Source of the DNA: Lachnospiraceae bacterium
Lineage (GTDB): Bacteria > Bacillota > Clostridia > Lachnospirales > Lachnospiraceae
Length of the DNA stretch: 64,000 nt
NCBI GenBank assembly: GCA_910575155.1
Contig: CAJTDX010000018.1
Coordinates: 1 to 64,000 of the forward strand
Direction: 5' to 3'
This document shows positions 29,216 through 34,562 of the stretch, one piece after another; position 1 is the first letter of the stretch, and each line of letters opens with the position of its first letter. Both the position numbers and the translations under genes were made by a program. The notes below the pieces were generated by a model that was not told the DNA's origin, ran no database searches, and saw only the letters and a list, made by a program, of their open reading frames with translations.

Positions 29216-29313
29216 GGAGGATAATTCAAAGTTATCCATTGGGTTTGTGATGATAAGTTTTATGGATAATCCACCGTTATCCGTCAATTAGTGAGGTAAG
29301 AATAGTTTAAAGT
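29216..29313 (+). repeat. 98-bp inverted repeat, left copy
   Basis: ggaggataattcaaagttatccattgggtttgtgatgataagttttatggataatccaccgttatccgtcaattagtgaggtaagaatagtttaaagt; read as the exact reverse complement of 34465-34562. Confidence 0.97.
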
Positions 29314-29409
29314 CATAAGTTATTTGTTTCATAGAAAAAAGTTAAAGAAATTATATGTTAAATTATGCGCAGTTGCAAATAACCGAAAAAATTTATTGTC
29401 TGTATAATA

Positions 29410-30000
29410 GGGTTAAAATTCTCGTTTTAACTCAACCCCATAGTTTCAAGTTTAGAAAGAGTGAAGACAGAGATACGAAGCTTGAAGTGAAGCAAATGGA
29501 GAATTTCAGAAAATCAGTATATTGCACATATGATATTAAGTATCATTTGATTTGGATAACAAAATACCGCAAACCTGTGATAACAATGGAGATAGCTATA
29601 AGAACGAGGGCACTAATCCGAATAATCTGTCAAAGTAACGAAGTGGAAATCCTAGCAGAACATATTAGGTAGTGCTCATATGCATTTGCCAGTATCAGTA
29701 GCGTCCCATTTGTCAACGAGTAAGTTAGTGCAATATATAAAAGGAAATACACCCAGAAAATGCAGATGGAGTGCAAAGAACTGAACAAGCAGTTCTGGGC
29801 AAGAGTCTATTTTGTGGCAAACAGTGGAAACGTAACTGATGAAATCATTAAAAAATATATTAAGAATCAAGATTTATAGAAGAGAAATAATTCAGATAAC
29901 TTTGAGATAGGATAAGGGTAGTGGGATGGAATAACATGGAATGTGAAAACTTTAGGCTGTTTTAGCAACATACTGAACCTACCGGCTTTGGCCGGTAGTG
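29410..30000 (+). mobile_element. decayed IS200/IS605-like element
   Basis: tnpA remnant with end-type hairpins: gggttaaaattctcgttttaactcaaccc (29410-29438) and ctaccggctttggccggtag (29979-29998). Confidence 0.65.
29496..29879 (+). pseudogene. IS200/IS605 TnpA remnant
   Basis: MENFRKSVYCTYDIKYHLIWITKYRKPV... then in shifted frames HLSTSKLVQYIKGNTPR and FWARVYFVANSGNVTDEIIKKYI. Confidence 0.85.
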
Positions 30001-30043
30001 GTTTAGTTGTCTTTAAATATGAAAAACAATGCACCATTTTTGT

Positions 30044-30832
30044 TTATGTCCATTCTGTAATATTTTTTTGTGAAATATCCCAAGGTATGTTTTCTTTACG
30101 TCTTTTAATATCACAATATTTACAAAAGGGAATCGGACGAGCAAGAAATTTTAGAATGTCGTTTGCATCTGCATGATATATATCAATGCAATCTCTATCG
30201 GTAATCTGTAAATTTTTGTTAAAATATTGATTAAAATGTACAATGTTAGGAGCCACTGTGCAAGGATAAAGACAACCGTTTTTTAAAAATATGCACACAT
30301 TTCCCATATCACATTTCGAAAAAGTATCAATGGGGTTTTGTTTGCCTGATATATCCAGTGGCAAACGCCATGAGGTTTTTATAACCTCATCTCTTTGATT
30401 TACATAGATAAGTTTTACATTATAATATTGTGCAAGTAGTTCCACTTTTGAATAGTCAAAATCAATAGGATATTTAGTTACATTAATTATAACAGAAAAC
30501 TTTTGGCAAGCAATCCAAAAATCGGGGATCTGAATCGGCAAAAGTAAACCATTTGTGTATAATTCCAAAGAAGTATCTGGAAAATATGCTCTACTAATTT
30601 GAAAAAATTTTATTACCTCTGGATGGAGTAAAGGTTCTCCTCCCAAAAGGCGGATATATTTTGCTTGGTTTTCAAAAATCTCTGCAAGACGTATAACATC
30701 TTTCTCATATTTTTGAGGAGAAAGAAAATTTTTCTTTGCAAGTGGTGAAAAATGATCACACATTTGACAGTTTAGATTGCAATGATCTACGAGATGAACT
30801 TCATATTGTAACTCTTGTAATAATGGTTTCAT
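30044..30832 (-). CDS. radical SAM protein with extra C-terminal cysteines
   Basis: VDHCNLNCQMCDHFSPLA (CxxxCxxC), RLLGGEPLLHPEV; CDMGNVCIFLKNGCLYPC and CKYC; start 30832 preferred with GAAAGGA upstream. Confidence 0.85.
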   Translation of the reverse strand: MKPLLQELQYEVHLVDHCNLNCQMCDHFSPLAKKNFLSPQKYEKDVIRLAEIFENQAKYIRLLGGEPLLHPEVIKFFQISRAYFPDTSLELYTNGLLLPIQIPDFWIACQKFSVIINVTKYPIDFDYSKVELLAQYYNVKLIYVNQRDEVIKTSWRLPLDISGKQNPIDTFSKCDMGNVCIFLKNGCLYPCTVAPNIVHFNQYFNKNLQITDRDCIDIYHADANDILKFLARPIPFCKYCDIKRRKENIPWDISQKNITEWT

Positions 30833-33350: not shown

Positions 33351-33359
33351 GTATAGGTA

Positions 33360-34373
33360 TCATGTTCTTTCCCAAATCCGATATGTAGCAGAGGATATAA
33401 TATAATCATATATGTAACGAAATGGGATATTTCTAAATTTACAAAGAGTTCCCATTTCAGAGGTTTCACTAATAACAGGATTTCCATTTAACTCAATAAA
33501 ATAGAGTTCCCCACTTTTTGTTAGCCTATAATCAATTCTAGTAAAATCTCTCATGCCTAAATATTCGAAAATGACTTCTGACGTTCTTTTTATTTTGCTT
33601 ATTATTTCTGGTGGCAATAGTTCCTCTGGGATAATTTGATTGCGCTTGCCACCAGATTTCTCTTCTATACCAAATATAAAGTTTTCAAAATAAAATTCAT
33701 TTTTATAACCATTTAAAATAATATCATTAAAGAGAAAATGATCTGGATTTCCAATCACAAAATTAGTAATCTCATATCCTGAGATATACTCTTCAACAAG
33801 TAACTCTTTAAAATTGCCTAATAATTGTTCCGTAATGCTCAATAATTCTTTCGGATTGGTTATAAAATTTTTTTGTGTAATACCAATAGAAGATCCTTCT
33901 CGATTTGGCTTAATTATTAGAGGATATGAAAGCGAACTAACTCTTTTTAGATCCTCTAGTCTGTGTATCAGAAATCCTTTAGGACTAAAAATATTAATAT
34001 TGTTAAGAATTTCTTTTGCAAACTGTTTGTTACCTGCAATTAATCTGGAGCACGCATCTGATCCGGCAAATGGGAGATTTAATAATTCTAAAAGTATTGC
34101 AGATTGTGCTTTTCTGCTAGCATGTTCCAAGCCATCGGAAAAATTCAAAAAAAGTGTATATGGTGGGAATGTTTGTTTTTGCTCATAGGCTCTGATCAAT
34201 TCATTAACACCTCCAAAATATTCTGCAACATAACCCAAAGAACAAATTTGTTTAACTGCAAATAAAATACTTTTTTGACTAGGATGATCATTGTAGATTT
34301 TCTCAGATAAAAGGAACTGATTCTTAAATTCTTCTCTAAGATTAGCCACAATATAAATATTATTAGATTTCAT
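33360..34373 (-). CDS. ATP-grasp ligase of D-Ala-D-Ala ligase-like fold
   Basis: LPFAGSDACSRLIAGNKQFAKEIL, YPLIIKPNREGSSIGITQ, LLVEEYISGYEIT, DFTRIDYRLTKSGELYFIELNGNPVIS. Confidence 0.85.
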   Translation of the reverse strand: MKSNNIYIVANLREEFKNQFLLSEKIYNDHPSQKSILFAVKQICSLGYVAEYFGGVNELIRAYEQKQTFPPYTLFLNFSDGLEHASRKAQSAILLELLNLPFAGSDACSRLIAGNKQFAKEILNNINIFSPKGFLIHRLEDLKRVSSLSYPLIIKPNREGSSIGITQKNFITNPKELLSITEQLLGNFKELLVEEYISGYEITNFVIGNPDHFLFNDIILNGYKNEFYFENFIFGIEEKSGGKRNQIIPEELLPPEIISKIKRTSEVIFEYLGMRDFTRIDYRLTKSGELYFIELNGNPVISETSEMGTLCKFRNIPFRYIYDYIISSATYRIWERT

Positions 34374-34464
34374 ACTGTCTTTTCCCCTTAAACAATAATT
34401 GCAATTACATGATTTTTGATATACTGATTACAATATAAAAGATGTCCATCCAAACTAATTAATA

Positions 34465-34562
34465 ACTTTAAACTATTCTTACCTCACTAATTGACGGATA
34501 ACGGTGGATTATCCATAAAACTTATCATCACAAACCCAATGGATAACTTTGAATTATCCTCC
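34465..34562 (-). repeat. 98-bp inverted repeat, right copy
   Basis: Reverse complement of 29216-29313. Confidence 0.97.

What the first reader, a model, noticed from the sequence alone, without database searches (positions are those of the whole stretch)
29216..34562. AT-rich cassette bounded by 98-bp inverted repeats: radical SAM protein, STAND-TPR ATPase and ATP-grasp ligase
Seen: 29216-29313 and 34465-34562 match base for base as reverse complements when aligned by hand. They bound about 5.3 kb that looks visibly more AT-rich than the pur/van/mutY DNA around it. Inside are a radical SAM enzyme (CxxxCxxC plus C-terminal Cys clusters), a large P-loop ATPase with probable TPRs, a D-Ala-D-Ala-ligase-like ATP-grasp enzyme, and a dead IS200-like element. 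Known: radical SAM and ATP-grasp enzymes each modify or ligate peptides or amino acids, and STAND-TPR proteins act as sensors or switches. Inference: this is a discrete mobile or invertible module making a modified small molecule or peptide, with the STAND protein as regulator, sensor or defence effector. I found no obvious precursor peptide gene and no transposase inside that would explain the repeats.
Basis: partly seen in the sequence, partly recalled or inferred. Interest (0 to 1): 0.87.

Follow-up and report, generated by a model that had tools for sequence, protein, structure and literature searches.

The report
Invertible, swappable two-faced gene cassette
This stretch is a gut-bacterial DNA cassette that a dedicated enzyme appears able to flip around and swap for a different one; nearly every cassette of this family holds two gene sets facing each other, usually an immune-type sensor against enzymes that build a small molecule, so flipping would choose which one is switched on.

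Summary
The repeats are real: 29216-29313 and 34465-34562 are perfect 98-bp inverted copies found nowhere else in the genome. Each carries palindromes GATAA-N7-TTATC. The same architecture lies beside one family of XerC/D-like tyrosine recombinases in dozens of Clostridia and on Streptococcus salivarius and Aliarcobacter plasmids: inverted sites, usually with identical spacer, flank 1.8-6.3 kb of AT-rich cargo. In 30 of 31 complete cassettes the cargo is two strictly convergent gene sets with abutting or overlapping 3' ends (median gap -4 bp): typically STAND/TIR/SIR2/nuclease-like proteins against small-molecule enzymes. Two pairs are Thoeris ThsA against a ThsB-like TIR. Two assemblies (Petralouisia muris, G122) hold junctions of both orientations, evidence of flipping. 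In S. salivarius, flanks 98-99% identical hold different cassettes swapped exactly at the sites; the window's sister species carries other cargo at the same locus. The window sets STAND (+ strand) against ATP-grasp and radical SAM (- strand), with a conserved promoter-like element outside the left site only. Alternating expression and function are inferred. I found no published description.

The parts
29216..29313 (+). Left inverted repeat arm (98 bp, perfect)
34465..34562 (-). Right inverted repeat arm (98 bp, perfect)
29220..29236 (+). Putative recombination core, left: GATAA-TTCAAAG-TTATC
   Evidence: same position as the core in other cassettes
34542..34558 (-). Putative recombination core, right, same spacer, inverted
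29265..29281 (+). Second palindrome GATAA-TCCACCG-TTATC, 45 bp inward of the core; possible accessory site
   Evidence: similar second palindrome in L011, L110 and G324
34497..34513 (-). Second palindrome of the right arm
29203..29211 (+). Extended -10 promoter-like motif TGGTATTAT outside the left arm, reading into the cassette
   Evidence: invariant block GGTGTGGTATTAT in window, G304, G324; a motif only
30870..33350 (+). STAND ATPase with TPRs (826 aa): gene set 1
33360..34373 (-). Ddl-like ATP-grasp ligase (337 aa): gene set 2
30044..30841 (-). Radical SAM protein (265 aa): gene set 2 (same strand as the ATP-grasp gene)
29355..29870 (+). Remnant of an IS200-like element, probably a later insertion into the cassette (outer limits approximate)
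25850..26824 (-). XerC/D-like tyrosine recombinase, catalytic residues intact; proposed invertase/exchange enzyme

Best explanation
It is a site-specific, invertible and exchangeable cassette of a widespread family that I could not find described. A XerC/D-like tyrosine recombinase pairs two inverted GATAA-N7-TTATC sites. Recombination between the two sites of a cassette flips the segment; exchange with an incoming cassette (by the recombinase or by homologous recombination in the flanks) replaces it. The segment carries two gene sets on opposite strands, normally each starting just inside one site and meeting tail to tail. A promoter outside one end reads in, so orientation decides which set is transcribed. 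In the window's assembled orientation the left-end promoter faces the STAND gene; after inversion it would face the ATP-grasp and radical SAM genes. Shown by sequence: sites, pairing, convergence, cargo diversity, junctions of both orientations in two assemblies, replacement at the sites. Inferred: that this recombinase acts on these sites, that expression alternates, and that the halves are a sensor/effector and a small-molecule maker used in defence or in conflict between cells.
For: Perfect inverted arms with palindromic cores, unique in the genome. 36 of 55 recombinase loci have an adjacent site; 66 sites seen, 2.9 expected by mononucleotide shuffling. In 27 of 31 complete cassettes the first 17 bp are identical at both ends, spacer included. 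30 of 31 cassettes strictly convergent, median 3'-3' gap -4 bp. Both junction types in P. muris (repeat 28 bp, contig overlap 55) and in G122 (repeat 37 bp, overlap 73). 12 recombinase contigs stop within 125 bp of the site. Same pair in both orders relative to the recombinase: L008/L082, L076/L079-L081, L064/L140. S. salivarius NU10 and ICDC2: different cargo with alignment breaks at the sites, flanks 98-99% identical. Sister species G304 has other cargo at the same locus. Promoter-like block conserved outside the left arm only in three species; extended -10 motif at 18 of 50 outer ends against about 2.2 expected.
Against: No expression, read-level or biochemical data. The window itself shows one orientation. 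Here the recombinase is separated from the cassette by dinB and yolD, and G304 has no recombinase between alr and dinB, so it must act in trans there, or not at all. Promoters are motifs only; the consensus scan finds fewer sites than shuffles, and three cassettes have an extended -10 motif at both ends. Where the site overlaps the recombinase stop codon, read-through could transcribe the near half too. The window has an outward-reading rSAM gene, unlike the other 30 cassettes. Thoeris halves are expected to work together in one cell, which fits badly with strict alternation.
Confidence: 0.7

Rival explanations
1. Mobility only: the inverted sites are the ends of an exchangeable cassette, both gene sets are expressed together as one two-part system, and inversion is a side effect without regulatory meaning.
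For: Clean cassette replacement at the sites. Conserved pairings of the two halves, including ThsA with ThsB-like TIR, suggest that the halves cooperate. Some cassettes have promoter-like motifs at both ends.
Against: 3' ends overlap or abut, leaving no room for terminators between convergent genes; in most cassettes with an extended -10 motif it is at one end only; start codons are mostly under 100 bp inside the sites, leaving little room for internal promoters; both orientations occur in assemblies.
Confidence: 0.2
2. Fixed locus with inert repeats: the long identical arms are kept alike by gene conversion, and cassettes change only by homologous recombination in the flanks.
For: The recombinase is not adjacent in the window and is missing at the G304 locus. 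Identical arms alone break short-read assemblies, as may be the case in MGB1 and G304.
Against: P. muris and G122 repeats are shorter than the contig overlap, yet junctions of both kinds exist. A recombinase of one family lies next to the site in dozens of unrelated loci.
Confidence: 0.07
3. A classical transposon with terminal inverted repeats that has lost its transposase.
For: 98-bp perfect ends, AT-rich cargo, dead IS200 element inside.
Against: No transposase recognised in the other complete cassettes examined; no target duplication visible beside the window arms; the same locus carries other cargo in a sister species; the recurrent companion is a tyrosine recombinase.
Confidence: 0.03

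Closest known systems
Phage Mu G segment / P1 C segment (Gin/Cin), from general knowledge
   Same: Invertible segment of a few kb between inverted sites, two convergent gene sets, promoter outside, invertase gene nearby.
   Different: Serine invertase there, tyrosine recombinase here; tail-fibre genes there, sensor/enzyme sets here; cargo is exchanged between strains and species.
Promoter-flipping invertons of gut bacteria (e.g. PMC11892184)
   Same: Inverted sites, often near a tyrosine recombinase, in Clostridia and other gut bacteria.
   Different: The examples read there are about 230-650 bp; here whole gene sets of 1.8-6.3 kb flip and the promoter-like motif stays outside.
Integrons and cassette exchange
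   Same: Tyrosine recombinase beside a site; cassettes enter behind an outside promoter; cargo is variable and defence-rich.
   Different: Recombinase below the integron-integrase cutoff; sites are inverted at both ends of one cassette, no array of attC sites seen.
Thoeris (ThsA/ThsB)
   Same: L110 and L071 carry SIR2-STALD ThsA and a ThsB-like TIR protein.
   Different: Genes are convergent in an invertible cassette; the window cassette has neither protein.
STAND defence proteins (Avs and relatives)
   Same: ATPase plus repeat sensor; EfAvs5 and Avs4 are among weak fold matches.
   Different: No N-terminal effector domain seen and no PADLOC match for the window protein.

Membership tests
Site-specific inversion system alternating two gene sets | Inverted recombination sites with matching core around the segment | tested here: met
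Site-specific inversion system alternating two gene sets | Both orientations exist | tested here: met
   Met in P. muris and G122 assemblies; could not be tested in the window species
Site-specific inversion system alternating two gene sets | Two gene sets on opposite strands, read inward | tested here: met
   30 of 31 cassettes; the window has an extra outward rSAM gene on the ATP-grasp strand
Site-specific inversion system alternating two gene sets | One outside promoter serving either orientation | tested here: inconclusive
   Motif evidence only
Site-specific inversion system alternating two gene sets | Linked recombinase that catalyses the inversion | not testable with these tools
   Linkage shown and catalytic residues present; activity not testable
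Integron | IntI-type integrase | tested here: not met
   114.7 bits against a cutoff of 265 for integron integrase
Integron | Array of cassettes each ending in one attC site | tested here: not met
   Single cassette between two inverted sites; no dedicated attC search was run
Transposon with terminal inverted repeats | Transposase and target-site duplication | tested here: not met
   Only a truncated IS200 Y1 fragment inside; no direct duplication beside the arms
Thoeris | ThsA (SIR2-STALD) plus ThsB (TIR) | tested here: not met
   Absent from the window; present in relatives L110 and L071
D-Ala-D-Ala ligase | Ddl equivalog score and fold | tested here: not met
   Ddl fold by model but 109 bits against a cutoff of 243; congeners have a separate Ddl-like gene near alr
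Known anti-phage STAND system | Match to a described defence family | tested here: not met
   No PADLOC hit for the STAND protein
Known anti-phage STAND system | Activity against phage | not testable with these tools
   Needs an experiment

The most novel reading that the evidence does not exclude
A cross-phylum class of conflict systems in which a small-molecule maker and its sensor/effector are split on the two strands of a flipping, exchangeable cassette, so that clonal sister cells are alternately makers and responders; it would include new Thoeris-like signalling pairs built on ATP-grasp, carbamoyltransferase, SHMT-like, glycosyltransferase or radical SAM enzymes with STAND receptors.
Probability: 0.25. 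Interest if true: 0.94.

Novelty: new variant of a known kind. Interest (0 to 1): 0.82.

Why it matters
If right, a common recombination platform in Clostridia, also on Streptococcus and Aliarcobacter plasmids, stores immune-type sensors and enzymes as interchangeable flip cassettes. It can be found by a simple rule: XerC/D-like recombinase, inverted GATAA-N7-TTATC pair, convergent genes. It yields a catalogue of uncharacterised sensor-enzyme pairs, including invertible Thoeris, and makes testable whether bacteria phase-vary signalling immunity by DNA inversion.

Tried and rejected
Ordinary scattered repeat: rejected, two copies in the genome and four core sites. Transposon: no transposase, replacement at a fixed locus. 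Viral origin: the core motif is absent from IMG/VR; phage-database hits of the recombinase at 62-63% identity are short unverified faecal scaffolds. Contig breaks in MGB1, G304, G060 and G022 were examined and not counted as inversion evidence, because the shared repeat may be as long as the contig overlap. A weight-matrix promoter scan gave strong sites at one end of some loci but nothing significant in the window; the consensus scan found fewer sites than shuffles. A wrong-frame recombinase translation (L074 row) was ignored. The window and L008 STAND proteins show no real similarity by BLASTP. Literature searches found no description, but a main survey of gene-altering inversions (PMC9881135) is not held, so an earlier description cannot be excluded.

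Full report
WHAT IS THERE. In detail: 98-bp perfect inverted repeats at 29216-29313 and 34465-34562 (96% over 110 nt), present only twice in the 4.19-Mb genome, around a 25-36% GC segment. Inside are a radical SAM protein, a STAND ATPase with TPRs, a Ddl-like ATP-grasp protein and a broken IS200 transposase. The repeat holds two palindromes, GATAATTCAAAGTTATC and, 45 bp further in, GATAATCCACCGTTATC. The pattern GATAATN6TTATCCNT matches four times in the genome, all in these arms.

A FAMILY OF SUCH ELEMENTS. A search of 299 genomes of the family with the repeat found one other genome (G255), again with an inverted pair: 90 bp, 100% complementary, 78% identical to the window's, flanking an ATP-grasp, a STAND-TPR and a TIR gene, with a XerC/D-like recombinase 75 bp outside one arm. 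That recombinase is 54% identical to window 25850-26824. The core motif occurs in GTDB genomes only in a few Lachnospiraceae records. Starting from the recombinase, 42 of 299 family genomes, and further genomes in other families of the class, have a close homologue. Of 55 recombinase loci read, 36 have a GATAA-N7-TTATC site within 350 bp, often directly behind or overlapping the stop codon; 66 such sites are present where 2.9 are expected by simple shuffling. The partner site lies about 1.7-6.3 kb away, inverted; in 27 of 31 complete cassettes the first 17 bp are identical at both ends, while spacers mostly differ between loci. Identical spacers are what tyrosine recombinases need for strand exchange (general knowledge).

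CARGO. In 30 of 31 complete cassettes every gene of at least 150 codons follows one rule: genes from the left site read right, genes from the right site read left, and the sets meet tail to tail with a median gap of -4 bp. Pairings recur across unrelated loci and diverged sequences: STAND with Ddl-like ATP-grasp (window; L082; L008 with TIR; L050 with a TIR-TPR fusion and radical SAM; G304; Aliarcobacter plasmid); AAA/restriction-like STAND with NodU-type carbamoyltransferase or glycosyltransferase; STAND with SHMT-like PLP enzyme (L055, L070, S. salivarius ICDC2); pentapeptide protein with ATP-grasp/radical SAM; TIR-like with radical SAM (L064, and by sequence L140 in the opposite order); and SIR2-STALD with TIR, which PADLOC calls ThsA (E 4e-98 and 1e-60) and ThsB-like (3e-11 and 2e-12) in L110 and L071.

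INVERSION. In Petralouisia muris the repeat is 28 bp, shorter than the 55-bp contig overlap; the same inner end is joined to one flank at the end of contig 53 and to the other flank at the start of contig 10. In G122 the recombinase-side flank is joined to both inner ends, and a third contig joins the other flank to one of them; the shared repeat is 37 bp, the overlap 73 bp. An assembly graph breaks this way if both orientations are in the reads. Twelve recombinase contigs stop within 125 bp of the site, and 29 of 119 ATP-grasp homologue clusters have a longest contig of 4.3-4.8 kb, about cassette size. Homologous pairs also occur in either order relative to the recombinase (L008 against L082; L076 against L079 and L081). 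This is assembly evidence, not read evidence.

EXCHANGE. Streptococcus salivarius megaplasmids carry the module beside pezT. Strains NU10 and ICDC2 are 98-99% identical outside and unrelated inside, with alignment breaks inside the 26-39 bp repeats; SALI-10 and LAB813 carry a third cargo. Aliarcobacter plasmids pAFAEC and pM830MA show different cargo next to a 98% identical recombinase, and pACRY43158 has STAND against ATP-grasp between 25-bp inverted repeats. In the window's genus, several species have alr next to mutY without the module; G310 and G312 have alr-cassette-recombinase-mutY; G176 has cassette-recombinase-dinB-yolD-hyp-mutY; the window has alr-recombinase-dinB-yolD-cassette-hyp-mutY; and its nearest relative G304 has a different cassette (GT2 plus another ATP-grasp against a SIR2-NACHT protein) in the same place.

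HOW IT PROBABLY WORKS. First genes start mostly under 100 bp inside the sites, and in S. salivarius the repeat itself contains a GGAGA-type ribosome-binding sequence, so transcripts probably start outside. An extended -10 motif occurs at 18 of 50 outer ends against about 2.2 expected, usually at one end of a cassette. In the window, G304 and G324 the block GGTGTGGTATTAT is invariant just outside the left site, while the right outer flank has no comparable block. I conclude that orientation selects the gene set: as assembled, the STAND gene faces the promoter; flipped, the ATP-grasp and radical SAM genes would. The window's rSAM gene reads outward but is on the ATP-grasp strand, so the two-strand logic holds. 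Its closest homologues share longest-contig lengths with STAND and ATP-grasp homologues, some only 4.3-4.5 kb, so it is probably an old member of the cassette, and the IS200 remnant a later insertion (inference).

PROTEINS. The STAND model (pLDDT 86) resembles the STAND-TPR structure 6mfv and Orc/Cdc6 ATPases, without a recognisable effector domain. The ATP-grasp model (pLDDT 93.8) has the Ddl fold and keeps the KPN-EGSS, EE and R-D...E-N motifs across its family, but scores far below Ddl cutoffs. The recombinase keeps R, HxxR, H and Y and is below the XerC, XerD and integron-integrase cutoffs. Substrate, signal and target are unknown.

LIMITS. No expression or read data; one assembly per species; promoter calls are motifs; G304 lacks the recombinase at the locus; site-frequency controls used simple shuffles. 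Literature searches found no description, but a main inversion survey is not in the library.

Noticed in passing
window 27000-27191: A 64-bp unit repeated three times in tandem (100% and 94% identical) just upstream of dinB, between recombinase and dinB.
   Followed up: no
window 29265-29281 and 34497-34513; also L110, L011, L108/L185: A second palindrome 45-46 bp inside the core, with conserved spacer TCCAC(C/T)G, in several cassettes of this group; possibly an accessory binding site.
   Followed up: partly
L083 (G223:C49, 1248 bp): A contig that consists of one recombinase gene between two different palindromic sites (spacers TTCTCAA and TACCTAA), as if one recombinase lay between two cassettes.
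   Followed up: no
L182 (G304:C9:1-8000): The sister species keeps the cassette but has no recombinase between alr and dinB; it may use one in trans.
   Followed up: partly
L051, L076, L079, L081: A recurrent pair of a ~340-360 aa protein without Pfam match against a ~560 aa protein (weak TPR match in L076) in both orders relative to the recombinase; function unknown.
   Followed up: no
L148 (Aliarcobacter plasmid pACRY43158) and L149/L152-L155 (S. salivarius megaplasmids): The same module on large plasmids in other phyla or classes, with YbaK, SHMT-like, methyltransferase or polyprenyl-synthase genes as cargo.
   Followed up: yes
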